A DNA stretch of 25,608 nt, taken from positions 1 through 25,608 of IMG/VR virus record IMGVR_UViG_3300048113_000776; one strand, given 5' to 3'. The stretch is from a virus. Below, piece after piece: positions 896 to 24,346 of this stretch. Under the pieces are notes generated by a model. The model saw only the letters and a program-made list of their open reading frames with translations. It had not been told where the DNA came from and made no database searches. The position numbers and the translations under genes are program-made. Within the stretch, counting starts at the first letter, position 1, and every line of letters starts with the position of its first letter.

Positions 896-2035
896 ATGAT
901 TAGAGAAAACGTAATAGTTAGTGGTTCACTTGACGTGAGTGGACAATTTATCATACCAAGAGGTAGTAGAGGGGAAAGACCTACTTCACCTGAGATAGGT
1001 TCTATGTACTTAGAAGAATCTACAAGTGGTAGTTTCGTTGTTACATACACTGGTTCATCTAATTATGATGATGGTTGGGAACCAGTGGGTTCGCAAGATA
1101 CTGACAGAACAGGATTCAAATACAGACAAATAATAAACTATTCATATTTGGCAGGTGGATATAAGTCAGGTTCACCTTGGAAGAATGTACATAAAACAAT
1201 TAACGCAACCGACCAAACATCTCACTTAGGTGAGTTATTAGATTACCCTGCAAACTATACCTCAGGGGCGTGTAGTAAAACTAAATTATTTCTTTGGTCA
1301 ACAAATACGGATGGTGCTCATAAAGGCGCAACTAACATACACTCAACACATACATCAGGTATTGATATGGTGAATGAAACAACATACACCCACCAATCTA
1401 AATGGGATTTATTAAATGCGAGAGATGATTGTGGTACCCTATTTAAAGAAACGGAGTTTGCGTATGTTTTTGGTGGATCTGTAGCAACAGTTGAGAAATT
1501 CAATTTAACAAATGAGACAATGTATACCACTTATTATCCTGGTGGTTCACCATATGTAACAACAACTTCATCTATTACAAGTACTTTAGGTTCATCAGGA
1601 TTCTCTGATGAAAATTATGGTTACGGTTACGGTTCTGAAAGTGGAAACAAATGTCACTTTGCTACTGATGTGTTCGAGACAAGGGCATCCTCATGGGCGT
1701 CTAGTGGACAACAGAAAGGGATTAGTTCTAAGGTTGGTAAAGGGTATTGTGGAAATGAAGGTACATATAATGGGGGTTATAATTTGAGAAGATGGGATGT
1801 CTTTACTGAAACCAATATAGGTAATGTACCTAAACCCCACCAAAATTGTGGTGAAGAAAACTTCACATTAGGACAAGACCATCAATACATGTTAGCAACA
1901 TACGATGGTACAGGTCAAACAAATACAAGTTGGAAATTCTCATATACGACAGATACGGGTACGGTAAATCCTGCAGGGTTAGCACCAGGTGTTAACGCAG
2001 GTGCATCATCAGGACATTGTGGTTGGAGAAATTAA
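896..2035 (+). CDS. Kelch-like beta-propeller tail protein, paralog 1
   Basis: A 379-residue protein, the first of three tandem paralogs. Residues 1-65 form a shared head: an ENxxVSGSL start, then a RPTSP..GS.YLEES segment and a YTG....D.GWE segment, which looks like a small attachment or folding domain. From about residue 80 on, I see six evenly spaced aromatic-glycine segments, each followed by Trp/Asn/Thr-rich strands, at about 83, 131, 188, 240, 282 and 330. The clearest is AYVFGGSVATVEKFNLTNET (189-208), a typical kelch-blade pattern. This implies a six-bladed beta-propeller. Cysteines in SGAC, NCGEENF and the terminal GHCGWR are conserved in all three copies. A role in receptor binding is inferred from its place directly after the tail fibre. 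No Shine-Dalgarno is present; the start is preceded by AAAAAAGAGTTAA. Confidence 0.8.
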   Translation: MIRENVIVSGSLDVSGQFIIPRGSRGERPTSPEIGSMYLEESTSGSFVVTYTGSSNYDDGWEPVGSQDTDRTGFKYRQIINYSYLAGGYKSGSPWKNVHKTINATDQTSHLGELLDYPANYTSGACSKTKLFLWSTNTDGAHKGATNIHSTHTSGIDMVNETTYTHQSKWDLLNARDDCGTLFKETEFAYVFGGSVATVEKFNLTNETMYTTYYPGGSPYVTTTSSITSTLGSSGFSDENYGYGYGSESGNKCHFATDVFETRASSWASSGQQKGISSKVGKGYCGNEGTYNGGYNLRRWDVFTETNIGNVPKPHQNCGEENFTLGQDHQYMLATYDGTGQTNTSWKFSYTTDTGTVNPAGLAPGVNAGASSGHCGWRN

Positions 2036-2047
2036 CTATTTATAGAT

Positions 2048-3166
2048 ATGATATTTGAAAATTTAGAAATTAGTGGGTCGTTAAGAGGTCAGGGAATAAC
2101 AAGACCACCCTCAGGTGCAAAGGCGGATAGACCTTCCTCACCTGAAAAAGGATCTATGTTCTTAGAAATGACGACATCGGGTAGTTTCGACAATAGTTTT
2201 CTAATGGTTTACACGGGTAATGGAAATGATTCTGGTTGGGAGAGAATTGCGAATCAAAGTAATTTTGGTAAAACCAGTTTTAGGTTCAATCAAATTATTA
2301 ACTACTCTTATTTGGCGGGAGGGTATAAATCCTCATCACCTTGGAAGAATGTACATAAGACGGTAAACTCTACAGATCAAACATCACACTTGGGTGAATT
2401 GTTAGATTATCCTGCATCATATACTTCAGGTGCGTGTAGTAGAACTATTTTCTACGTATGGTCTGTTAATAATGATGGTGCATGGAAGAGTGCGAGTAAT
2501 GTACATGGTACATATACATCTGCGATTAATATGGTAACCGATACTAATTATACACACACCGCTGAGATGGATACTAATATAGCAAGAAGTGATTTAGGTA
2601 CGATGCATAAGGAAACAGAAATGGCATATCTTTTTAGTGGGGGTAGTGCCACTGTTGAGTTATTTAATTTAACCACAGAATCCTTACATACGGCATATAC
2701 ACTATCAACAATAAACGGTAGTGATGGTGGTTCGGCATTTTCGGATGAACTATATGGTTATGGTTGGACTTCAAGTGGAGGTGTCAAATTAAACTTTTCA
2801 ACGGAAACTTTTGCAACATCCCCTCATTGGTCAAACCATTCACAACAAAAAGGTATCTCATCTAAAGTTGGTAAAGGTTATGCCGGTAATGAAGGTTCAT
2901 ATAGTGGTGGTTATAACTTAAGGAGATGGAGTAATCAAACAGACACCAATATAGGTAATGTTGTCAAACCCGATGGTAACTGTGGTGAAGAGAATTTTAC
3001 TATGGGTCAAGATTGGCAATACATGTTAGGTAATTATAATGGTCTCCAAAACAATAATTCATGGAAATTTACATACGCAACTGATACGGGTACAACAAGT
3101 GTAAGTGGGTTAAATCCCGCAGTAAACGCTGGTACTTCATCAGGTCATTGTGGTTGGAGAGAATAA
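2048..3166 (+). CDS. Kelch-like beta-propeller tail protein, paralog 2
   Basis: A 372-residue paralog of its two neighbours, with the same head domain (about residues 1-72, with RPSSPEKGSMFLE and YTGNGNDSGWE) and the same six-blade body. Highly conserved patches are INYSYLAGGYKSSSPWKNVH, TSHLGELLDYPA, KGISSKVGKGYAGNEGSY, GGYNLRRW, NCGEENFTMGQDWQYMLG and the C-terminal NAGTSSGHCGWRE. The segments between these patches differ strongly from paralogs 1 and 3 (for example residues 205-260), as expected for exposed loops under diversifying selection on a conserved scaffold. Only 12 bases separate it from each neighbour. Its last 46 coding bases are identical to those of paralog 3. A structural or adhesin role is inferred; I know of no exact named family. 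Confidence 0.8.
   Translation: MIFENLEISGSLRGQGITRPPSGAKADRPSSPEKGSMFLEMTTSGSFDNSFLMVYTGNGNDSGWERIANQSNFGKTSFRFNQIINYSYLAGGYKSSSPWKNVHKTVNSTDQTSHLGELLDYPASYTSGACSRTIFYVWSVNNDGAWKSASNVHGTYTSAINMVTDTNYTHTAEMDTNIARSDLGTMHKETEMAYLFSGGSATVELFNLTTESLHTAYTLSTINGSDGGSAFSDELYGYGWTSSGGVKLNFSTETFATSPHWSNHSQQKGISSKVGKGYAGNEGSYSGGYNLRRWSNQTDTNIGNVVKPDGNCGEENFTMGQDWQYMLGNYNGLQNNNSWKFTYATDTGTTSVSGLNPAVNAGTSSGHCGWRE
3119..3165 (+). repeat. 47-bp direct repeat, copy A (3' end of paralog 2)
   Basis: An exact 47-base match to 4247-4293, covering the codons for AVNAGTSSGHCGWRE and part of the stop codon. The surrounding coding sequence of the two paralogs is much more diverged, so this run stands out. It could reflect recent gene conversion or very strong local constraint. 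Confidence 0.9.
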
Positions 3167-3178
3167 AATTTTAAGAAT

Positions 3179-4294
3179 ATGATATACGAAAATATGTCCG
3201 TTAGTGGTTCACTTAAAGTGGACAGAGTTACTGCAAGACCACCGAAAGGTGTTAAGTCACAGAGACCATCGAACCCATTATCTGGTTCTTTATTCTTGGA
3301 AGAATCATCAGAACACACAAGTTATTTAATGGTTTATACGGGTGTGTCTAATGTGGATGAGGGTTGGGAAAGAATTTCAGCACAACAAAACGAAGGAACT
3401 AATTTTAAGTACAGACAAATAATTAATTATTCTTACATCGCCGGTGGATATAAATCCTCATCACCTTGGAAGAACGTACATAAGGCAACCAACGCAACTG
3501 ATCAAACAACCCACATTGGTGAGTTATTGGACTATCCCGCAAACTACACATCAGGAGCGTGTAATCTTAGAATATTTTTTATGTGGTCTGTAAATACGGA
3601 TAGTGCACATAAAGGACCAACGTCTCTACATAGTAACACAACTTCTGCGGTCAACATGTTTACCGACACTAACTACGCCCACCAATCTAACCATGACTTA
3701 CAATATAGTAGGTCCGATTGTGGAACCATGTGGAAAGAACATGAGTTTGCTTGGATTTTTGCGGGTAACAGAACAGAGGTAGATAAATTTAATTTAACTA
3801 ATGAAACGACAATAACAAACTATGGGGTAACCTCGATAAGTAGTAGTGGTGGAGCGAGTTCTTTTTGTAATGAAACCCATGGATATGGATGGAGTACAAG
3901 TAGTATAAAAATGGAATTCTCTACGGAGACTATATCAAGTTCATCAAGTTCATGGTCAGCACACGGACAACAAAAAGGTATTCCATCTAAAGTTGGTAAG
4001 GGTTATGCCGGTAATGAGGGATCTTACCAAGGTGGTTACAATTTGAGAAGATGGGATACATCTACAGATACGAATATTGGTAATGTTGCAAAATTAAGAT
4101 CGAATTGTGGGGAAGAGAATTTCGCTATGGGCCAAGATTGGCAATACATGTTAGGTTGTTACGGTAGTTCTTTACAGAATAACGATAGTTGGAAAATGTA
4201 CTATCAAACAGATACGGGAGTTTTAAATCCCGCGGGTCTTCCACCGGCAGTAAACGCTGGTACTTCATCAGGTCATTGTGGTTGGAGAGAATAG
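3179..4294 (+). CDS. Kelch-like beta-propeller tail protein, paralog 3
   Basis: A 371-residue third copy. Head domain about residues 1-68 (MIYENMSVSGSLKVDRV, then RPSNPLSGSLFLEESS and YTGVSNVDEGWE), then the same propeller body with a FAWIFAGNRTEVDKFNLTNET blade near the middle, KVGKGYAGNEGSYQGGYNLRRW and the invariant C-terminal AVNAGTSSGHCGWRE. It is closer to paralog 2 than to paralog 1 over most conserved patches. Variable stretches are rich in Ser/Gly/Thr (for example SSSGGAS and SSSSSWS). It is the last gene of the adhesin cluster; about 58 bases without a gene follow. Products could assemble as different baseplate or fibre tips, or as alternative receptor binders; the sequence does not decide. 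Confidence 0.8.
   Translation: MIYENMSVSGSLKVDRVTARPPKGVKSQRPSNPLSGSLFLEESSEHTSYLMVYTGVSNVDEGWERISAQQNEGTNFKYRQIINYSYIAGGYKSSSPWKNVHKATNATDQTTHIGELLDYPANYTSGACNLRIFFMWSVNTDSAHKGPTSLHSNTTSAVNMFTDTNYAHQSNHDLQYSRSDCGTMWKEHEFAWIFAGNRTEVDKFNLTNETTITNYGVTSISSSGGASSFCNETHGYGWSTSSIKMEFSTETISSSSSSWSAHGQQKGIPSKVGKGYAGNEGSYQGGYNLRRWDTSTDTNIGNVAKLRSNCGEENFAMGQDWQYMLGCYGSSLQNNDSWKMYYQTDTGVLNPAGLPPAVNAGTSSGHCGWRE
4247..4293 (+). repeat. 47-bp direct repeat, copy B (3' end of paralog 3)
   Basis: The partner of 3119-3165. Identity stops at the third base of the stop codon (TAA in paralog 2, TAG in paralog 3). Confidence 0.9.
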
Positions 4295-5867: not shown

Positions 5868-6866
5868 ATGAATTTAGCAATAAATGGTACATGTGCTAAA
5901 GGTTGTTCTTTCTGTTTCACAAAAGAAGATGCGAGACTAAAACATACTCTTGGTGAGATGTCAATAGAAAAAGTAGGTGAACTACTTGATCATTTTGATA
6001 TTGAAGGATCTAGAGAGGAGGTTACAATACTTGGAGGGGAACCCACACAACATTCAAATTTTATGGGTCTGATGGATTATATAATCTCAAGAGGTTATAA
6101 GGTTAATCTTGTCAGTAATTTACTATTTGGTAAAAGAACCTTAGATTATATAACAAACAACATAAAACATATTAGGTGGATATTACCTAATGGTGCTGAG
6201 TTGGATGAAAAAAATAGGTTAAATCTATTTAAGAAAAACTACTTATCACTTTACTCAACCTATGCAAACACATGGGGATTTGAGGACAATTCAAGATTAT
6301 TTATTGCAATAACACTTTCGTCCGATTGGAAGGAAAGAAAAATGTTTGAATACATTAAGTGGTTATATCATGCTTTGGATGGTAAATTAAATGCAATAAG
6401 GTTAGGTTTAGATTTAACAGGTACTTACCTAATTAACAATAAAGAAATGGGTAAAGAAGTTACTAAGATATTAAAGTTTGGACTTTACAATAATATTCAA
6501 GTGACCTCTGATTGTCAAGTACCACCGTGTTTGTGGGAGGGGGGAAACAAACAATCAATTATGGAGAACTCTTTAGGGTTCGCGACTTTCAAAATACCAG
6601 GTTACGATAAAATTTGTGGTTTCATGCCTTTAGATATATTCCCTGATGGATCCTCAATACACTGTTACCCATTACAAGATAAAGTTAAGATAGATAATGT
6701 ATTGAAAATATCGGGAGAAAACAATATATTATCATTGAGGGATAAGTTCGATGATTTATATCGAGAAAACCATAAAGATTATAGTATACCACAAGATTGT
6801 TTAGATTGTGTTTTTTATAAAACAGAATGTAATGGTATTTGTGGAGGTTGTTTAGAAAATGAGTAA
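5868..6866 (+). CDS. Radical SAM protein with SPASM-like C-terminus
   Basis: A 332-residue protein. The radical SAM cluster motif CAKGCSFC (CxxxCxxC; C9, C13, C16) sits at the very N-terminus, followed by GGEPT at 56-60, the SAM-binding motif after strand 2. The C-terminal part has the SPASM pattern: C250, then LDIFPDGSSIHC ending at C266, then a Cys cluster C311, C314, C321, C325, C328, which can bind one or two auxiliary Fe-S clusters. Family knowledge: radical SAM/SPASM enzymes mostly modify peptides or proteins (thioether, C-C crosslinks, epimerisation), and some act on sugars. There is no obvious small precursor peptide gene nearby, so this may act on a phage or host protein rather than on a RiPP. 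It overlaps the next gene by 8 bases. Radical SAM is firm; SPASM is likely; the substrate is unknown. Confidence 0.9.
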   Translation: MNLAINGTCAKGCSFCFTKEDARLKHTLGEMSIEKVGELLDHFDIEGSREEVTILGGEPTQHSNFMGLMDYIISRGYKVNLVSNLLFGKRTLDYITNNIKHIRWILPNGAELDEKNRLNLFKKNYLSLYSTYANTWGFEDNSRLFIAITLSSDWKERKMFEYIKWLYHALDGKLNAIRLGLDLTGTYLINNKEMGKEVTKILKFGLYNNIQVTSDCQVPPCLWEGGNKQSIMENSLGFATFKIPGYDKICGFMPLDIFPDGSSIHCYPLQDKVKIDNVLKISGENNILSLRDKFDDLYRENHKDYSIPQDCLDCVFYKTECNGICGGCLENE

Positions 6867-7899
6867 AATATTCTCAATACCATTAAATCCTATGTTAAGT
6901 GAACAGGCGTTCACACATGTATTCTATCCATTTCTACAAAAGAATAAGGATTGGATATATGATATATACTTTACCTGTAGAATACCCCCTTTTACTCAGG
7001 ATGCTATGGGGTCTGTTATAAATGAAGACGATAGATATTCAGTTTTTGATAATGCGTTGATGATACAGGAGACTTTAGGTATAAAAATTAGTGCTACATT
7101 CAATAATTTTAACGTGTCTCCCAAATATGAAAATTATAAATTATTTATTGAAAACTTAAAACCACTTTATGATAAAGGTTTAAGGTCCATGACGATACCT
7201 CACGGTCATTGGGTGGCTATGGGTTTAAAGGACCATTTTCCTGAGATGCATATTAAAAATACCATACTCAGGAAGGTTAATACCGCACAAGATTTTTGGT
7301 ACTCCGCCGAACAAGGGTTTGACTACATTAATGTTGATAGAATATTGATGAGGGATATGGAGGAACTAAAGAACATTAGAAGAGCACAACTCATGTTTCA
7401 ACAAAAACATGGTAGATACGTTGAGATTGCGTTATTAACAAATGAAGGTTGTTTAGGTAGATGTCCCGTTATGGATGAACACTACTCATATAATAACTTA
7501 AGAAAACCTAACGAATTACCGTATTTTCACCATGAGATATCAAAAGTCACATGTGAACATAAATGGGAAAACGAAATCGGTGCGTTCTTCTTTAAAACTG
7601 CAACCATACCACCATTTAAAAAAGAATTTGATGAATACCTAAATCATATCGATGTCTATAAAATGCATGGTAGGGATAGTTTTGATAGATTAAATGAAAC
7701 TATGGAAATAGTGGAATCTTATTCACAAGGTAAGGACATCTTATCAAAATCCTCAGAAATATATTTAGATGGTGTCCCTCATGAAGAGTTAAGGGGTTGG
7801 AGAAATAAGATCAAGAAATGTAAATTTCAATGTTGGGATTGTAATTATTGTGATATTGTCTCTGAACACAAAAAAAAGAAATTAAATGGATCTAATTAA
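6859..7899 (+). CDS. U32-like TIM-barrel iron-sulfur protein
   Basis: A 346-residue protein. Repeated strand-helix units fit a TIM barrel: DIYFTC, KISATFNN, LRSMTIPHG, INVDRIL and VEIALLTNEGC. The stretch RDMEELKNIRRAQ (165-177) followed by VEIALLTNEGCLGRCP and an H at 208 resembles the barrel exit of the U32 'peptidase' family (UbiU/UbiV, RlhA, TrhP), which are 4Fe-4S proteins doing oxygen-independent hydroxylation. Candidate cluster ligands are C198, C202, C232 and a C-terminal knot C321, C325, C328, C331. The spacing differs from classical U32 members, so this would be a divergent branch. It starts inside the end of the radical SAM gene and ends inside the start of the methyltransferase gene, so the three are surely co-translated. 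The fold assignment is moderate; the reaction is unknown. Confidence 0.75.
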   Translation: MSKIFSIPLNPMLSEQAFTHVFYPFLQKNKDWIYDIYFTCRIPPFTQDAMGSVINEDDRYSVFDNALMIQETLGIKISATFNNFNVSPKYENYKLFIENLKPLYDKGLRSMTIPHGHWVAMGLKDHFPEMHIKNTILRKVNTAQDFWYSAEQGFDYINVDRILMRDMEELKNIRRAQLMFQQKHGRYVEIALLTNEGCLGRCPVMDEHYSYNNLRKPNELPYFHHEISKVTCEHKWENEIGAFFFKTATIPPFKKEFDEYLNHIDVYKMHGRDSFDRLNETMEIVESYSQGKDILSKSSEIYLDGVPHEELRGWRNKIKKCKFQCWDCNYCDIVSEHKKKKLNGSN

Positions 7900-8551
7900 A
7901 CACATTGATGAATCCATTGAGTGGGGGAATAGAGAGGTTTCTAAACTTAACCAAGACGTACTCAACATTCACGGTATCACTAGTAACAAAGTTAGATGTT
8001 TCTTAAATAACCTATGTTCAATAGGTGGGACTTATTTGGAGATAGGTGTCTTCAGAGGAGCAACTTTTTGTTCATCAATCTACAATAATGATAATCTTCA
8101 CAGTATAGGTATTGATAATTTTGCATCACCCAACCTTATGCCGATGGGTGTGAGTCAGAAATTAGCAACATATTTAAAACAAGGTATTGACACCCCACCA
8201 CAAGAAGATTTTTTAAATAATGTTAAGAGGTTTGGAAAAACTGAACAGATTGACGTTTATAAAACAGACTATACCACATTTGATTACACCCAACTACCTA
8301 AGTTAGATATTATATTTTATGACGGGGATACTAAATTCCATGATCAGTATGTTACACTTAAAAAATTAATCCCCCAATTCTCAGACAAAACAATACTCAT
8401 AATGGATGATTGGAATTGGAACAGTGGTGCGTTAGATCGAGTGATACACGAGGAAAAACTATTTGTGACCCATCAAAGAGAAATTTATACAAGTGGTGAG
8501 GATATGTCAGATTTTTGGAATGGATTGGGTATTTTTTTATTTGAAAGGTAG
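7886..8551 (+). CDS. Class I SAM-dependent methyltransferase, TylF/Methyltransf_24-like
   Basis: A 221-residue protein. SAM-binding motif I is YLEIGVFRGATF (about residues 51-62); an acidic strand end follows at GIDNF. The catalytic region has IIFYDGDTKFHDQYVTLKKL and then ILIMDDWNW, which matches the macrocin O-methyltransferase (TylF) type, where Asp residues bind a metal and a His-Asp pair sits at the active site. That family O-methylates sugars and small aglycones, so a sugar or modified-residue target is plausible. It overlaps the U32-like gene by 14 bases. Its end meets the promoter of the outer-membrane gene, closing the three-gene cassette. Confidence 0.85.
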   Translation: MDLIKHIDESIEWGNREVSKLNQDVLNIHGITSNKVRCFLNNLCSIGGTYLEIGVFRGATFCSSIYNNDNLHSIGIDNFASPNLMPMGVSQKLATYLKQGIDTPPQEDFLNNVKRFGKTEQIDVYKTDYTTFDYTQLPKLDIIFYDGDTKFHDQYVTLKKLIPQFSDKTILIMDDWNWNSGALDRVIHEEKLFVTHQREIYTSGEDMSDFWNGLGIFLFER

Positions 8552-8602: not shown

Positions 8603-9460
8603 ATGCAAAAATTAATATTATCAATATTGTTAGTGTTAGGAACACATCAATTATCGGCACAATACTCGGGACGAGCACTTAGTAATGGTCAACAAGACAG
8701 TACACAAGTTAAAAAATTAAACGAGGTTGTAGTTACAGCCAAAAAGTATAGTCAATTCGAATTAGTGGGTGAGAATAACCAACCCGCTTGGACATTAGTA
8801 AGAAAATTTCCATCAACCAGAACTTATATTATGGTCCCTAAGGGTACTGTGATGTATGAAAAATGGTTCGATATGAGAACACCAAGAGGTGGTGACCCAA
8901 CAGAAGTTAGAATGAGAGATGAGATTGCATTTGGTCTAGCTAATAGATTAGAGTTGGATCTATATATTCACACAGTTTATAAATCTGATGGGTATGAATC
9001 TTCATACGGTTTCAGAGGGTTTTCGTGGGAGATAAGATACGCACTTGCCGAATGGGGTAAGATATGGGGTAATCCAACTTTGTACTTTGAACACAAATTA
9101 TTGGATGGTAAATACCAAGGTATAGAACCAAAACTACTTTTAGGTGATCGTATTGGTAAAAGAGGAATATGGGGCGTAAACTTAATTTATGAGGCGTATA
9201 CTGCACCAACACGAGAAGACCAAAAAAGAGAGTACGCTTATACCGCATCTTATGGTCAGGTAATAAATGATGATTTAACGATAGGTCTGTCTAACATGTT
9301 TAGACATAACGATGTAGATGGTTCAAATGAATGGTATGTTGGACCCGCACTACAATATAGATTTAACGGTAATGCATATGTAAACTTTGAATTACTGCCA
9401 GGTCTTAATGAAGATGCGAAGAAGTTTAGAAATACCATTATTTTTGGATGGAGATTCTAA
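8603..9460 (+). CDS. Bacteroidota-style outer-membrane beta-barrel protein
   Basis: A 285-residue protein with a signal peptide: basic start MQK, hydrophobic core LILSILLVLG, and probable cleavage after residue 19 (SA|Q), the usual Bacteroidota form. Mature residues 39-48, LNEVVVTAKK, match the plug-entry motif of Bacteroidota TonB-linked receptors, but there is no plug or 22-strand barrel. From about residue 100 on the chain alternates polar and hydrophobic residues with aromatic girdle positions (LDLYIHTVY, GVNLIYEAY, LTIGLSNMF, WYVGPALQYRF), typical of a 10-12 strand barrel. It ends in Phe (FGWRF), as outer-membrane barrels do. A phage copy would alter the infected cell's surface: uptake, superinfection exclusion or receptor masking are all possible. 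It overlaps the permease gene by 13 bases. Confidence 0.85.
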   Translation: MQKLILSILLVLGTHQLSAQYSGRALSNGQQDSTQVKKLNEVVVTAKKYSQFELVGENNQPAWTLVRKFPSTRTYIMVPKGTVMYEKWFDMRTPRGGDPTEVRMRDEIAFGLANRLELDLYIHTVYKSDGYESSYGFRGFSWEIRYALAEWGKIWGNPTLYFEHKLLDGKYQGIEPKLLLGDRIGKRGIWGVNLIYEAYTAPTREDQKREYAYTASYGQVINDDLTIGLSNMFRHNDVDGSNEWYVGPALQYRFNGNAYVNFELLPGLNEDAKKFRNTIIFGWRF

Positions 9461-10461
9461 TTAAAAACCAAGACTTCCTACTTTACTTAGGATTCATTAT
9501 GGTCATAACGGGAATCCTAAAAGAAAAGGGATACCTTACTGACGTATTTAGTCTTTTACTAAAGACAGTGAAATCAAAGAAAATAGTTTTATTTCTAATT
9601 TCACTATTTGGTGGGGTTTTACCGATACCTGGTAGGGTTGCGGTTTCTGCGGGAATACTCGATACAATTGCCCCAAAAGATAAGAGGGGTAGGGAGAATT
9701 ATGGTATCATAGATTACCTATCAACACACCACTATTACATATGGTCACCTTTAGAGAAAACGGTAATCATACCTATGGCGATATTAGGTGTAACTTATGG
9801 AGAACTAATCAATATATTGTATCCACTTTTAATTATATCTTTATTAGTTATATGTGGTTTTATATATAAATTTGAAGACGGTAATATAGAAATACCAAAA
9901 ATCCATAAGATCAATTATAAGAACGTTTATCTTATATTCTTACCGTTCATACTAACATTGGTATTATCGGGTCTTACGGATCGTTATTTACCTTTATTTT
10001 GTGGTTTTACTCTGTACTTAGTCAGTTACTCTAACTCGTGGGGTAAATTACTTAAACACGTCAATTGGAAATTGGTAATTAGTGTAGGGGTTGTGATTGT
10101 ATTTTCTAATTTCATATCTCAATACAATGAACAAATAAAAACATATTTAGAGGGGGTTACCACAACTTATAATATTTTTTTGGTTGGAGGTTTATGTTTC
10201 TTGAGTTCGTTCTTATTGGGGTCATCAGGTAAATACGCGGGAATAGTTTCAATAGTCAGCTCAATAGTGGGTATTGAATATTTTCTTTTCTTATTTACAA
10301 TGTGTTACTCAGGTTATTTATTATCTCCAACACATAAGTGTGTTTACATAGGACAACAATATTTTGGTACTCCCATAAAAAAATATATCTCATCCATTTC
10401 GGTATGGACAATAATTATGATAGTCTACAGTGTTTTAGACTTGACTTTTAAATTAAAATAA
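9448..10461 (+). CDS. DUF401-like multi-pass permease
   Basis: A 337-residue integral membrane protein with about 8-10 hydrophobic segments (roughly 9-27, 46-60, 103-139, 157-192, 207-223, 240-283, 317-333). Two family signatures of DUF401, a group related to ion-transporter-superfamily permeases, are visible: GGVLPIPGRVAVSAG (54-68), a probable re-entrant loop, and GYLLSPTHKCVYIGQQYFG near the end, resembling the SPxHxC...YF motif. Substrates of DUF401 proteins are not established. The ATG lies inside the last codons of the outer-membrane barrel gene, so the two are translationally coupled and may work together across the two membranes. Inner-membrane location is expected. It is an unusual phage cargo gene and probably host-derived. 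Confidence 0.8.
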   Translation: MEILIKNQDFLLYLGFIMVITGILKEKGYLTDVFSLLLKTVKSKKIVLFLISLFGGVLPIPGRVAVSAGILDTIAPKDKRGRENYGIIDYLSTHHYYIWSPLEKTVIIPMAILGVTYGELINILYPLLIISLLVICGFIYKFEDGNIEIPKIHKINYKNVYLIFLPFILTLVLSGLTDRYLPLFCGFTLYLVSYSNSWGKLLKHVNWKLVISVGVVIVFSNFISQYNEQIKTYLEGVTTTYNIFLVGGLCFLSSFLLGSSGKYAGIVSIVSSIVGIEYFLFLFTMCYSGYLLSPTHKCVYIGQQYFGTPIKKYISSISVWTIIMIVYSVLDLTFKLK

Positions 10462-18990: not shown

Positions 18991-19562
18991 AAAAACATTT
19001 AATAGTAATAGGACATCCCGATAAAAAATCATTTTGTTACAATGGTATTTTCAAAACTATCGTAAGAGAGTTAACCAGATATAAAGAAGAGTTTGAGATT
19101 ATTGATTTATATGATGATAAATTACATCGTGATAGAACCGAGTTAATCAAGGGATATAAAAAATTAGTTAAGTGGTCAACTCACATCTATTTTGTTTCAC
19201 CTGTTTGGTGGTTTAGACTTACCCCTAAAACTGAGACATTCTTCGATGAGGTACTCACACCAGGTTTTGCATATAAGTTCATACCATTGTTTGGTAAGTA
19301 TGCTTACCCAAAACCATTTCTTAGTGATAAGAAAGTTAGGACCTATATAACACATGGTGCACCGATGTTACCTGTTGTTACTTTATATCTTAATTCAGTT
19401 AAGTTAAGATTAGTAATGGGGGTTTACACGTTTGTGTTTGGATGGAAATTGAGTAGGTGGAGAAAAACAAAACAATTTTGGTCAGTACCATTTGTAGATG
19501 CGAAGAAACGAGCAAAATATTTACGAGTGGTAAAAAATGATATTAGGAAAGATTTAAAGTGA
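18987..19562 (+). CDS. NAD(P)H-quinone reductase-like flavodoxin-fold protein
   Basis: A 191-residue protein. I take ATG 18987, which overlaps the upstream stop as ATGA; an in-frame ATG at 18951 would add 12 residues lying wholly inside the membrane-protein gene. The start KKHLIVIGHPDKKSFCYNG is the FMN/FAD phosphate-binding strand of the MdaB/KefF/NQO1 family, which reads GHP..SF.. in bacteria. Later, HIYFVSPVWWFRLTPKTETFFDEVLTPGFAYKF matches the family core (P.WW...P...K...D.v...GFA). It would carry FAD/FMN and do two-electron quinone or nitro-group reduction. Coupling to a membrane protein is reminiscent of KefF-type soluble partners, but this is speculation. Residues about 150-191 are basic. 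Confidence 0.85.
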   Translation: MKKHLIVIGHPDKKSFCYNGIFKTIVRELTRYKEEFEIIDLYDDKLHRDRTELIKGYKKLVKWSTHIYFVSPVWWFRLTPKTETFFDEVLTPGFAYKFIPLFGKYAYPKPFLSDKKVRTYITHGAPMLPVVTLYLNSVKLRLVMGVYTFVFGWKLSRWRKTKQFWSVPFVDAKKRAKYLRVVKNDIRKDLK

Positions 19563-19789
19563 AGATAGAAGACTTAGATAGGATTATAGAAATGGCATGG
19601 GAAGATAGGACCCCCTTTGAAGCTATAGAATTCCAATTCGGTATTAAAGAGAATGAGGTTCGTAAGATAATGAGAACTCATATGAAAGAGTCATCATTTA
19701 AGATGTGGAGAGAACGTGTAAAAGGTAGAAAAACTAAACATAGTAAAACATCAGAATCAAATAGATTTAAATCTAAAAATCAGAAATAG
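19559..19789 (+). CDS. DUF2805 (TIGR03643-like) protein
   Basis: A 76-residue protein. DLDRIIEMAWEDRTPFEAIE followed by FGIKENEVRKIMRTHM and SSFKMWRERVKGRKTKH is the whole conserved core of DUF2805, a small helix-turn-helix-like family known from Bacteroidota and cyanobacteria. The GTG start overlaps the preceding stop (GTGA). The Lys/Ser-rich tail is variable. It could bind DNA; there is no direct evidence. Presence in a phage suggests host acquisition and agrees with a Bacteroidota host. Confidence 0.85.
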   Translation: MKIEDLDRIIEMAWEDRTPFEAIEFQFGIKENEVRKIMRTHMKESSFKMWRERVKGRKTKHSKTSESNRFKSKNQK

Positions 19790-20343: not shown

Positions 20344-21366
20344 ATGAATAAGTTAGATGCACAGTACCAAGGATTATTGGATGATATATTAAATTTCGGA
20401 GTAAAGAAGAATGATCGTACAGGGACAGGTACATTATCTGTGTTTGGTAGACAGATAAGACATAACATGAACGATGGTTTCCCTCTACTAACAACTAAAA
20501 AAATGGCGGTCAAATCCGTAATGACTGAATTAAAATGGTTTTTAAAAGGAGATACTAATATCAAATACTTAGTGGACAATGGTTGTAAAATTTGGAATGG
20601 TGATGCATATAAAAATTACTTAAACATTTACAACTATAATTTTAAAGATGACGATACTATTGAACCCCTCACTATAGAGGAGTTCATGGAGGATTTCAAT
20701 GAAGATCAAGAATTTAGAGATCAATGGGGTGAGTTAGGTCCTATCTACGGAAAACAATGGAGACATTGGTTTGGATATGATAGTAATGTTAACCCATATT
20801 ATGTAGATCAAATCTCAAATTTAATTAATGAACTTAAAGTTAATCCTGATAGTAGAAGATTGATGGTGTCGGCATGGAATGTTGGAGAGTTAAGTCAAAT
20901 GGTTTTACCTCCCTGTCATTATGGTTTCCAAGTGTATACCAGAGAATTAAATTTAGATGAAAGAATTGACTACCACAATAGAGGTTCTATAAACAAATCT
21001 TCAGATTATTTTAGTGAACATATGGATGCGATGGGGGTACCAAATAGATCCATATCCTTATCTTGGAATCAGAGATCTGTTGATACGTTTTTAGGTTTAC
21101 CATTCAACATAGCATCTTATGGGATGTTACTACATCTAATTGCTAAAGAAGTAAATATGGTACCCGAAGACCTTATAGGTAATTTAGGTGACACCCACTT
21201 ATATTTGAATCATGTGGAACAGGCGGAAGAACAATTAAGTAGAGAACCTAAACCCCACCTACCAAAATTGAAATTACTTAGTTCCGATATTATGAACGGT
21301 GATTTTGACTATGAGTTATTACATTATCATTCACACCCACCAATAAAAGCACCACTAAGTAATTAA
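20344..21366 (+). CDS. thyA: Thymidylate synthase ThyA
   Basis: A 340-residue protein, longer than the common 264-residue form. Converts dUMP to dTMP with methylene-tetrahydrofolate. Landmarks: NDRTGTGTLSVFGRQIRHN near the start, TELKWFLKGDTNIKYL, GPIYGKQWR (132-140), the phosphate-binding RR (171-172), catalytic Cys in LPPCHYGFQVY (C191), and SLSWNQRSVDTFLGLPFNIASYG. There are two insertions: an acidic one at about 100-128, and RELNLDERIDYHNRGSINKSSDYFSEHM between the catalytic Cys and the QRS motif, as in several phage and Bacteroidota enzymes. The final HPPIKAPLSN replaces the usual MAV end. It supplies dTMP for phage DNA replication in AT-rich DNA. Confidence 0.97.
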   Translation: MNKLDAQYQGLLDDILNFGVKKNDRTGTGTLSVFGRQIRHNMNDGFPLLTTKKMAVKSVMTELKWFLKGDTNIKYLVDNGCKIWNGDAYKNYLNIYNYNFKDDDTIEPLTIEEFMEDFNEDQEFRDQWGELGPIYGKQWRHWFGYDSNVNPYYVDQISNLINELKVNPDSRRLMVSAWNVGELSQMVLPPCHYGFQVYTRELNLDERIDYHNRGSINKSSDYFSEHMDAMGVPNRSISLSWNQRSVDTFLGLPFNIASYGMLLHLIAKEVNMVPEDLIGNLGDTHLYLNHVEQAEEQLSREPKPHLPKLKLLSSDIMNGDFDYELLHYHSHPPIKAPLSN

Positions 21367-21759
21367 ATGCAATTAATAACAACACACCCAATAAAGAAAT
21401 CAGATTTAGGTTTTCACGCTAACTTGTTTGGTGGTAAACTACTAGCATGGTTAGACGCTGCTGGTGCTGCATATGCAATGGAGATATGTGACACACCAAG
21501 AATGGTTACTGTCATGATTGATAAATGTATATTCAAAAAACCAGCTAAGGAAGGACAACTAATTAAGATTTATGGAAATGTAGTTCATGTTGGTAACACG
21601 TCAATTACGTTTTATTTAGAGGCGAGAGCCCATAATGTGTACTCAGGTAATCAAACGGTTATATTACAAACTAACATAAGATTTGTAAGGATAGATGAAA
21701 ATGGGGACTCCGTTCCATTATCTGACAAAATCAAAAACAAATATGGAACAAAAGAATAA
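21367..21759 (+). CDS. Acyl-CoA thioesterase, hotdog fold (YciA/ACOT-like)
   Basis: A 130-residue protein. HotDog helix motif N-L-F-GGKLLAWLDAAGAAYA (19-37, with N19 and D30 as the usual catalytic pair), followed by VTVMIDKCIFKKPAKEGQLIKIYG and the strand VGNTSITFYLEARA, typical of the YciA/ACOT7 family. It would release free fatty acid and CoA from acyl-CoA, probably as a hexamer. ATG follows immediately after the ThyA stop. The phage role is unknown: lipid remodelling of the host or recycling CoA are options. It overlaps the chorismate mutase-like gene by 17 bases. Confidence 0.85.
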   Translation: MQLITTHPIKKSDLGFHANLFGGKLLAWLDAAGAAYAMEICDTPRMVTVMIDKCIFKKPAKEGQLIKIYGNVVHVGNTSITFYLEARAHNVYSGNQTVILQTNIRFVRIDENGDSVPLSDKIKNKYGTKE

Positions 21760-22042
21760 TTATAATTTTCGTTTAGACATATTAAGAAGAAAGATTGATG
21801 TTTTGGATGATGCGTTGTATGGTTGTATTAAAAAAAGATTTAACGATACTAACCTCATAGGTAAGTTAAAAAGAGAATACCACATTACGGATATGTGTGA
21901 GAAGCGTAAAGAAGAAATTTACGGAAGACTTGAAACTAAATGTAATGATGATGGTTTACCACCACAATTACTTAAAGACATATACAACCTAATATTTGAG
22001 TACTCAATAAAAGACCAAAAAAGAATAATTGGTGAGAAGTAA
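21743..22042 (+). CDS. AroQ-type chorismate mutase-like protein
   Basis: A 99-residue all-helical protein of the usual AroQ monofunctional length. I take ATG 21743; an upstream in-frame ATG at 21695 would overlap the thioesterase gene by 65 bases. It aligns without gaps (offset +4) to the mutase domain of E. coli PheA as I recall that sequence: LRRKIDVLDD (R15 for R11), KKR (R32 for R28), GKLK (K43 for K39), R55 for R51, and SIKDQ (S88 and Q92 for S84 and Q88). Two positions differ: D48 is Cys52 and E52 is Lys56. It should convert chorismate to prephenate as a dimer, though the E52 change may lower activity. I know of no well-described phage chorismate mutase. Other helical AroQ-fold roles are possible. 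Confidence 0.8.
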   Translation: MEQKNNYNFRLDILRRKIDVLDDALYGCIKKRFNDTNLIGKLKREYHITDMCEKRKEEIYGRLETKCNDDGLPPQLLKDIYNLIFEYSIKDQKRIIGEK

Positions 22043-22265
22043 CGTTATTGATTTACATGGACTAAACAGGACGGAAGCGTTCATTCTTGTCGAAGATGAG
22101 TTATTAATTAGATCTAATAGTGGGACATTCAGTCTAACAATAATCACAGGTAATAGTAAACCCATGAGAGATGGGGTTATCCGTATATGTGAAACACACG
22201 GTTTTAGTTACGTGGTACCATCACACAATATGGGTGAAATAATAGTTAACTATTTTTCGTTTTAA
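22032..22265 (+). CDS. Smr-domain protein
   Basis: A 77-residue stand-alone Smr domain. The start is GTG 22032 or TTG 22029, both inside the end of the chorismate mutase gene. Motifs: VIDLHGL (5-11), a helix EAFILVEDELL, then the nuclease-loop strand LTIITGNS (35-42), followed by MRDGVIRICETHGFSYVVPSHNMGEIIV. The family cleaves or binds branched DNA or RNA; the classical TGxG is TGNS here. Closes the plus-strand operon. Confidence 0.85.
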   Translation: MRSNVIDLHGLNRTEAFILVEDELLIRSNSGTFSLTIITGNSKPMRDGVIRICETHGFSYVVPSHNMGEIIVNYFSF

Positions 22266-24016: not shown

Positions 24017-24346
24017 ATGGTAGACGTAACAGAAATAGCAATAGAAAAAATAGTGGGTCTAATGATGGATGAAGGTATAACCCCCGACACTCACAATCTC
24101 AGGGTTGGTGTAAGTGGTGGAGGTTGTAGTGGATTACAATACGAAATGGACTTTGATGATAAAATAAATGAGGGTGATAGTGTCTTTGAAGTGGACGCAA
24201 TAAAGGTGGTTGTTAATAAACCTTCACTACTTTATTTAGCGGGAACAGTGTTAGATTTCCAAGGTGGTTTAAACGGTAAAGGGTTTGAATGGATCAACCC
24301 AAACGCATCAAGAACCTGTGGATGTGGGGAAAGTTTTAGTTTGTAA
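24017..24346 (+). CDS. A-type Fe-S carrier (IscA/ErpA/HesB family)
   Basis: A 109-residue protein, the family's usual length. The three ligand Cys are in place: C37 in SGGGCSGLQYEMDF and C101/C103 in RTCGCGESF. The central VVVNKPSLLYLAGTVLDFQ and GFEWINPNA are also standard. It would accept Fe-S clusters from the scaffold and pass them to apoproteins. Similar hesB-like genes are known from marine T4-like phages. In this window the likely clients are the radical SAM and U32-like proteins, though host enzymes are equally possible. Its own promoter is a near-leaderless site. Confidence 0.95.
   Translation: MVDVTEIAIEKIVGLMMDEGITPDTHNLRVGVSGGGCSGLQYEMDFDDKINEGDSVFEVDAIKVVVNKPSLLYLAGTVLDFQGGLNGKGFEWINPNASRTCGCGESFSL

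What the first reader, a model, noticed from the sequence alone, without database searches (positions are those of the whole stretch)
21743..22042. Phage-encoded AroQ chorismate mutase-like protein
Seen: a 99-residue helical protein aligning without gaps to the E. coli PheA mutase domain as I recall it, with R11, R28, K39, R51, S84 and Q88 all matched at a constant offset of +4, but D48 changed to Cys and E52 to Lys. Known: these residues bind the dicarboxylate and ether oxygen of chorismate. A shikimate-branch enzyme is a rare phage cargo and I know of no described case.
Basis: partly seen in the sequence, partly recalled or inferred. Interest (0 to 1): 0.8.

Follow-up and report, generated by a model that had tools for sequence, protein, structure and literature searches.

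The report
Phage-borne chorismate mutase-family protein
A bacterial virus carries its own small chorismate mutase-type protein, an enzyme family of aromatic amino acid making, with an unusual but conserved change in its active site; it is real, but similar genes already sit in some other phages, mostly unremarked.

Summary
Window 21743-22042 (+) encodes 99 aa matching Pfam CM_2 over the whole domain (3e-12). The AlphaFold2 monomer (pLDDT 91.9) is closest to E. coli chorismate mutase 1ecm (TM 0.83/0.90). 'No described case' is wrong: 51 phage records carry a CM_2 relative by one search, some named so, and a rumen virome paper reports one. The best-matching cellular domains found, of DAHP synthase-CM fusions, also lack Glu52 but keep the other six. 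Most likely it makes prephenate from host chorismate. In T4-like phages a separately branching CM_2 gene adjoins a peptidase-U32 gene, a family with prephenate-dependent RNA hydroxylases, so phage CMs may feed prephenate to a modification enzyme. Against this, Mosigvirus, where 5-hydroxycytosine DNA is reported, has the U32 gene but no CM. For the window phage the link is inconclusive. Activity is untested.

The parts
21743..22042 (+). CM_2 (AroQ-type chorismate mutase family) protein, 99 aa; overlaps the gene before it by 17 bases and the ORF after it by 14
20344..21366 (+). thymidylate synthase, 340 aa, with the Asn of true thymidylate synthase (FNIASY; motif recalled); first gene of the TS-thioesterase-CM-Smr run
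   Evidence: PF00303 5.6e-90; phrog_160 1.9e-105
21367..21759 (+). 4HBT thioesterase-superfamily protein, 130 aa, directly before the CM gene
   Evidence: PF03061 3.9e-17
22029..22265 (+). small Smr-domain-like ORF after the CM gene
   Evidence: PF01713 1.7e-4, 22.1 bits, below the cut-off of 25.7; ORF
6859..7899 (+). cysteine-rich TIM-barrel protein, possibly U32-like; candidate user of prephenate (inconclusive)
   Evidence: AF2 pLDDT 70; best PDB fold match U32 protein 5d88, Foldseek 4.2e-7 (216 matches at 0.001 or better), Z 14.6 against 14.2 for MTHFR, a tie; no Pfam U32 match; profile comparison no better than shuffled columns
5868..6866 (+). radical SAM protein overlapping the U32-like gene
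   Evidence: PF04055 4.1e-10
7886..8551 (+). methyltransferase-like protein overlapping the U32-like gene; both match parts of one longer PHROG (phrog_1458, 519 positions)
   Evidence: PF13578 1.7e-6

Best explanation
A free-standing AroQ-type chorismate mutase carried by a large phage, perhaps captured from a cellular CM domain of the DAHP synthase-CM fusion type. Made from a compact run of overlapping genes (thymidylate synthase, thioesterase, CM, Smr-like), it would form the usual helical dimer. Arg32, Lys43, Arg55, Ser88 and Gln92 of one chain and Arg15 of the other would hold chorismate and drive the rearrangement to prephenate, with Cys/Ser at 52 and Lys/Arg/Gln at 56 replacing the usual contacts to the 4-hydroxyl. 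The phage would thereby pull host chorismate into prephenate, for Phe/Tyr or for a prephenate-using modification enzyme. Shown: family, fold, conserved residues, purifying selection, gene order. Inferred: dimer, activity, expression, origin, purpose.
For: CM_2 3e-12 over positions 1-80 of 80. Of 16 NCBIfam models with E up to 10, 15 are chorismate mutase, CM-family or CM-containing bifunctional models and one is isochorismate lyase; best 6.1e-10, none over its own cut-off. AF2 pLDDT 91.9, three helices; Foldseek 1ecm first, TMq 0.83, TMt 0.90, rmsd 1.3. Six binding residues invariant in 11 of 11 rows. dN/dS about 0.11 for one pair. A thymidylate synthase gene lies next but one before the CM in L010, L099, L100 and L101. 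DAHPS-CM domains score best against the viral-family model (68.3 and 58.5 bits; other sampled cellular CMs at most 47.0) and are its sister in the tree (85/82), with K/Q at 48 and W/Y at 52. Cys at 48 also occurs in the H. pylori CM 6al9, solved with prephenate.
Against: Glu52 is missing in all 11 rows. No activity data. No other gene of the aromatic pathway was seen in the 142.7-kb relative G002, but only 73 of its 123 ORFs of at least 90 aa were scanned with Pfam at E up to 1e-5. The CM gene sits in other settings in L105 and in L106/L108, so the thymidylate synthase link is not general. Tree support for the DAHPS-CM origin is moderate, the cellular sample is small, and one clade with T4-like phage CMs is not rejected (p-AU 0.373; with EcCM 0.173).
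Confidence: 0.62

Rival explanations
1. Regulator, not a metabolic enzyme. A lone CM-type domain pairs with the host's own fused DAHP synthase-CM (or another CM partner) and changes its activity or feedback, raising flow into the shikimate pathway or blocking it.
For: The best-matching cellular domains found are those of DAHPS-CM fusions. PMC5526877 describes a CM-like domain of B. subtilis DAHP synthase with reduced catalytic activity (passage). Glu52 is lost.
Against: All six chorismate-binding residues stay invariant down to 32% identity, which a mere docking domain should not need (inference). The host is unknown and no partner was tested.
Confidence: 0.17
2. Changed substrate: a CM-fold lyase or mutase acting on isochorismate, 4-amino-4-deoxychorismate or a similar compound, with Lys/Arg/Gln56 reading a different group at C4.
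For: PchB, an isochorismate-pyruvate lyase, shares the fold and, as recalled, also lacks Glu52 (Val). The CM-like subfamily TIGR01803 matches P0001 at 2.4e-6 and 11 of 11 rows at 0.01 or better; so does the isochorismate lyase model NF005475 (best 1.5e-8).
Against: NF005475 gives P0001 only 18.9 bits against a cut-off of 126. The best PchB chain ranks 14th by Foldseek, below 1ecm. No isochorismate or aminodeoxychorismate synthase family appeared among nine window neighbours and 73 ORFs of G002.
Confidence: 0.12
3. Prephenate for a phage hydroxylase. The CM serves a U32-type, prephenate-dependent enzyme that hydroxylates a nucleotide or RNA; in the window phage the candidate is the ORF at 6859-7899.
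For: U32-family TrhP and RlhA need prephenate (PMC6599085, passages). In T4-like phages a U32 gene (PF01136 9.8e-12) is followed by a CM_2 gene in 14 of 17 loci scanned (several are near-duplicates), close to a thymidylate synthase-superfamily gene in those whose annotation was read. Shewanella phage Thanatos, with a pentose on cytosine (PMC12838424, passages), has both genes in its relative Thanatos-2. The window ORF's best solved-fold match is the U32 protein 5d88, and phrog_2895 matches it at 2.3e-5 and phage U32 at 0.018.
Against: Mosigvirus, the group for which 5-hydroxycytosine is reported (PMC13390438), has the U32 gene but no CM match (L016, L147). PMC13390438 credits a thymidylate synthase-superfamily enzyme with the hydroxyl step. 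No Pfam U32 match in 0 of 8 records of the window's kin. The window ORF family against phage U32 is not above shuffled columns (at least 5 of 40 scored higher; reversed control lower). The ORF is present without a CM match in 17 of 20 records searched (20 chosen of 80 fetched, leaving out ten records already known to carry the CM; many are fragments), and relatives occur in 123 cyanophage records. L105, L106 and L108 have a CM but no U32 match in the sequence held.
Confidence: 0.2

Closest known systems
AroQ-type chorismate mutase, E. coli P-protein mutase domain (EcCM, PDB 1ecm; PF01817)
   Same: Three-helix fold, TM 0.83/0.90; R11, R28, K39, R51, S84, Q88 kept
   Different: Stand-alone; D48 is Cys, E52 is Lys; 26% identity in the Foldseek alignment
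C-terminal CM domain of bifunctional DAHP synthase/chorismate mutase type II (Pseudoalteromonas WP_308362832, L158; fecal contig L138)
   Same: Best scores with the viral-family profile, sister in the tree (85/82), lacks Glu52 and Asp48, keeps the other six residues
   Different: Fused to DAHP synthase; W or Y at 52, not K/R/Q; 34% identity for L158
CM_2 proteins of T4-like phages (PHROG 10027 for Edwardsiella PEi26, Yersinia fHe-Yen9-01 and Shewanella Thanatos-2)
   Same: Free-standing CM_2 gene in a phage, near a thymidylate synthase-superfamily gene; P0001 matches phrog_10027 at 1.2e-6
   Different: Separate clade (98/95; common origin not rejected). Read by hand, L012, L014 and L017 keep Glu52 but have V or L at Arg51; the programs put a gap there or stop before it. 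They adjoin a U32 gene
PchB, isochorismate-pyruvate lyase
   Same: Same fold; Glu52 also absent (recalled)
   Different: Far below the isochorismate lyase cut-off: 18.9 against 126 bits

Membership tests
AroQ / CM_2 chorismate mutase family (PF01817) | Profile match over the curated cut-off across the whole domain | tested here: met
   47 bits against 27, profile positions 1-80 of 80; 46.8 bits in the search of the record
AroQ / CM_2 chorismate mutase family (PF01817) | Three-helix AroQ fold | tested here: met
   AF2 pLDDT 91.9, helices 2-45, 53-70, 74-97; 1ecm top, TMq 0.83
AroQ / CM_2 chorismate mutase family (PF01817) | Arg11, Arg28, Lys39, Arg51, Gln88 (EcCM numbering) of the active site | tested here: met
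   Present in 11 of 11 viral rows, as is Ser84
AroQ / CM_2 chorismate mutase family (PF01817) | Glu52 (and Asp48) of EcCM, usual in the family; not strictly defining, since proteins annotated as CM lack them | tested here: not met
   K/R/Q at 52 and C/S at 48 in 11 of 11 rows; E at 52 in 11 of 15 readable cellular rows, W, Y, V, V in the rest
AroQ / CM_2 chorismate mutase family (PF01817) | Domain-swapped dimer with a closed pocket | not tested
   Only a monomer was modelled
AroQ / CM_2 chorismate mutase family (PF01817) | Chorismate to prephenate turnover | not testable with these tools
   Needs an enzyme assay
Isochorismate-pyruvate lyase (PchB type) | Match over the NCBIfam isochorismate lyase cut-off | tested here: not met
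   NF005475 18.9 bits against 126 for P0001
Peptidase U32 family, for the window ORF 6859-7899 | PF01136 profile match | tested here: not met
   No match at E up to 1 or 10
Peptidase U32 family, for the window ORF 6859-7899 | U32 fold with conserved Glu and cysteines | tested here: inconclusive
   5d88 is the top fold match, tied with other TIM barrels; E196, C198, C202, C232 and four C-terminal Cys invariant in 14 rows, and profile comparison within shuffled controls

The most novel reading that the evidence does not exclude
Phage chorismate mutases are a recurring way to secure prephenate for phage-made base or RNA modification: captured more than once, in T4-like phages beside a U32 hydroxylase-family gene and a thymidylate synthase-superfamily gene of the modified-cytosine pathway, and in this phage family beside thymidylate synthase with a U32-like barrel protein in the same genome. 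Relatives without the CM would live on host prephenate. The window family runs the reaction with a rebuilt 4-hydroxyl contact (Cys/Ser at EcCM 48, Lys/Arg/Gln at EcCM 52).
Probability: 0.22. Interest if true: 0.8.

Novelty: new variant of a known kind. Interest (0 to 1): 0.45.

Why it matters
If active, this gene gives a phage direct control of a branch point of aromatic metabolism, and it bears on a point PMC12783734 leaves open: the availability of prephenate to phages that use it (passage). It also offers a natural AroQ family without Glu52 to test how far that contact matters. The T4-like gene neighbourhood found on the way gives a concrete, testable proposal about the 5-hydroxyl of modified cytosine in phage DNA.

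Tried and rejected
Chance match of a helical protein: rejected. Decaying gene: rejected by dN/dS (one pair) and invariant residues. Host contamination: thought unlikely; the window and the 17 IMG/VR records with a relative are virus records, gene neighbourhoods were read only in the window, L002, L010, L099-L101 and L105-L108, and relative G002 has tail-spike chaperone (Peptidase_S74) and primase matches. Close cellular donor: two genome scans found none (one peptide pattern each, so weak). Cx-SAM route (CmoA): 0 of 18 records matched. P0001 itself had no match in the phages collection, so stretches of solved CMs were used to find phage CMs. Two 'Bacteriophage sp.' fecal records (MT836175, MT837090) carry bacterial-looking gene runs, judged by eye, and were not counted as phage; MT837090 (L138) served as a cellular DAHPS-CM example. 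AGRM01000002 is a Salmonella contig and was taken out of the 52 (leaving 51). The claim that window ORF 6859-7899 is a U32 enzyme was lowered to inconclusive after the shuffle control. Left out of the 30-row tree for under 70 aligned residues: 1ybz, the Azospirillum domain L163, L137 and L144. Dropped from alignment A7 as identical or nearly so: L001-L003, L005, L007, L008, L104. Papers: PMC10465536, PMC3483164, PMC6599085, PMC12838424, PMC6024577, PMC13390438, PMC5526877 and PMC12783734 were seen as passages only. Lee et al. 2025 (bioRxiv), He et al. 2026 (Nat Chem Biol) and Mahler et al. 2025 were seen only in the reference list of PMC13390438; they may already describe the U32 or CM gene of T4-like phages. 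I found no held paper that joins a phage CM or U32 gene with prephenate, by searches (only 15 of 141 listed; 20 of 60 listed) and 105 and the in-paper searches; the library is partial. PMC3483164 only names an integrase's best match. PMC6024577 and PMC12838424 hold neither 'chorismate' nor 'U32'.

Full report
OBSERVATION. The ORF at 21743-22042 on the + strand is 99 codons and a stop. It overlaps the thioesterase-like gene before it (ends 21759) and the Smr-like ORF after it (starts 22029). The only Pfam family found is CM_2, 3e-12, 47 bits against a cut-off of 27, over the full profile. NCBIfam gives 16 models with E up to 10: 15 are chorismate mutase, CM-family or CM-containing bifunctional models, one is isochorismate lyase, and none is over its cut-off. 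PMC5526877 names these EcCM residues (passage).

FOLD. AlphaFold2 on the window protein with ten viral relatives gives pLDDT 91.9 and helices 2-45, 53-70, 74-97. Foldseek against the PDB ranks 1ecm (E. coli CM) first: E 3.6e-3, probability 1.00, TM 0.83 and 0.90, rmsd 1.3 A over 89 columns. No match reaches E 0.001, as can happen with short helical models; the first 28 rows are CM, CM-like domain or PchB chains, counting 1ybz, titled there 'conserved hypothetical' and called chorismate mutase. A dimer was not modelled.

RELATIVES. Scans of IMG/VR found 17 records with a relative. Eleven non-redundant rows, window included, run down to 32% identity. Thirteen columns are invariant, and all six named residues are among them. 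Position 48 is Cys in 7 and Ser in 4 of 11 rows; position 52 is Lys in 5, Arg in 4 and Gln in 2, never Glu. Window against L006 gives dN 0.029 and dS 0.266. This looks like a selected site, not decay.

CELLULAR COMPARISON. Cellular CMs were sampled from plasmid records, two fecal contigs and the PDB. Of 15 rows in which position 52 could be read, 11 have Glu; the others have W, Y, V and V. A profile of the viral rows scores two DAHP synthase-CM fusion domains best, 68.3 bits (Pseudoalteromonas plasmid) and 58.5 bits (fecal contig); the other cellular rows reach at most 47.0. Those two keep the six residues but have Lys or Gln at 48 and Trp or Tyr at 52. In a tree of 30 rows the viral family is one clade (100/99) with the fusions as sister (85/82, not starred); T4-like phage CMs form their own clade (98/95), and a CM-like ORF of a 484-kb phage record falls beside a Thermus CM (89/75). 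The AU test does not reject one clade of window family and T4-like CMs (p 0.373) or of window family and EcCM (p 0.173). So separate capture and a fusion-type donor are favoured but not shown.

OTHER PHAGE CMs. tblastn with the Edwardsiella phage PEi26 protein finds 52 records in 50,697, of which one is a Salmonella contig, leaving 51 phage records. Annotations include 'chorismate mutase' (ON630910), 'monofunctional chorismate mutase' (PP582757) and 'chorismate mutase domain-containing protein' (MZ634347); many are 'hypothetical protein'. PMC10465536 reports a chorismate mutase auxiliary gene in rumen viruses (passages). The claim that no case is described therefore fails.

NEIGHBOURHOOD. In the window the run is thymidylate synthase (20344-21366), thioesterase-like (21367-21759), CM, Smr-like (22029-22265), also seen in L010. 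A thymidylate synthase is likewise next but one to the CM in L099, L100 and L101 (in L101 a different 108-aa ORF replaces the thioesterase). In L105 the CM lies in a run of ORFs that by eye look like sugar-nucleotide genes, in L106 and L108 among small ORFs. In T4-like phages the CM lies between or near a U32 gene and the thymidylate synthase-superfamily gene 42. A phage U32 relative occurs in 218 of 50,697 records. Of 17 U32 loci scanned with a CM profile, 14 have a CM just downstream and three (L016, L146, L147) do not; several loci are near-duplicates, and four of the CMs (L011, L012, L014, L017) were in the profile.

WHY PREPHENATE. TrhP and RlhA, of the U32 family, need prephenate to form ho5U and ho5C in RNA (PMC6599085, passages). 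PMC13390438 states that Mosigvirus DNA carries arabinose on 5-hydroxycytosine and that 5-hydroxy-dCMP is made by a thymidylate synthase-superfamily enzyme (passages); it mentions neither U32, chorismate nor prephenate. PMC12783734 shows a phage CmoA using prephenate and calls for study of prephenate availability. So a phage CM has plausible clients. For T4-like phages this is a fair hypothesis from gene order, with one strong objection: the Mosigvirus locus L016 has the U32 gene but no CM; a host supply could explain that. For the window phage it is weak. ORF 6859-7899 folds most like U32 protein 5d88 (Foldseek 4.2e-7; Z 14.6, tied with other barrels at 14.2 and below), has invariant Glu196, Cys198, Cys202 and Cys232, and shares a weak PHROG match with phage U32 (phrog_2895, 2.3e-5 and 0.018). 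But no U32 profile matches it, profile comparison with phage U32 does not beat shuffled columns (at least 5 of 40 higher), and it is present without a CM match in 17 of 20 records searched, these being 20 of 80 fetched, chosen without ten known CM carriers and many of them fragments.

VERDICT. Family membership and fold are settled; catalytic activity is likely but untested. All other binding residues are kept, and cellular proteins annotated as CM also lack Glu52 (their activity was not tested here). The gene is a new phage-borne variant of a known enzyme family, not a new kind. The host is unknown; a Bacteroidota host is only a guess.

Noticed in passing
L012:115-4917 and 218 phage records: T4-like phages carry a peptidase-U32 gene, often followed by a CM_2 gene, between a nucleotidyltransferase ORF and gene 42; a prephenate-dependent step in cytosine modification would fit.
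   Followed up: partly
5868-8551: Three overlapping genes, radical SAM, cysteine-rich TIM barrel and methyltransferase-like; the last two match one longer PHROG (phrog_1458), and the barrel has relatives in 123 Synechococcus, Prochlorococcus and cyanophage records.
   Followed up: partly
24017-24346: A-type iron-sulphur carrier (TIGR00049 107.7 bits over the cut-off 58.8), which could serve the radical SAM and barrel proteins.
   Followed up: no
9448-10461: Membrane protein matching TIGR00529 (1.3e-16, below cut-off), an odd gene for a phage.
   Followed up: no
896-4294: Three tandem proteins of 371-379 aa that look related by eye, perhaps tail or fibre paralogues.
   Followed up: no
19559-19789: DUF2805 protein (1.5e-33), function unknown.
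   Followed up: no
L150-L157 (relative G002): The 142.7-kb relative matches S-adenosylmethionine synthetase, a D12-class DNA adenine methyltransferase and two radical SAM proteins by Pfam.
   Followed up: no
L137, L138: Two records of the phages collection (MT836175, MT837090) look like bacterial chromosome pieces.
   Followed up: partly
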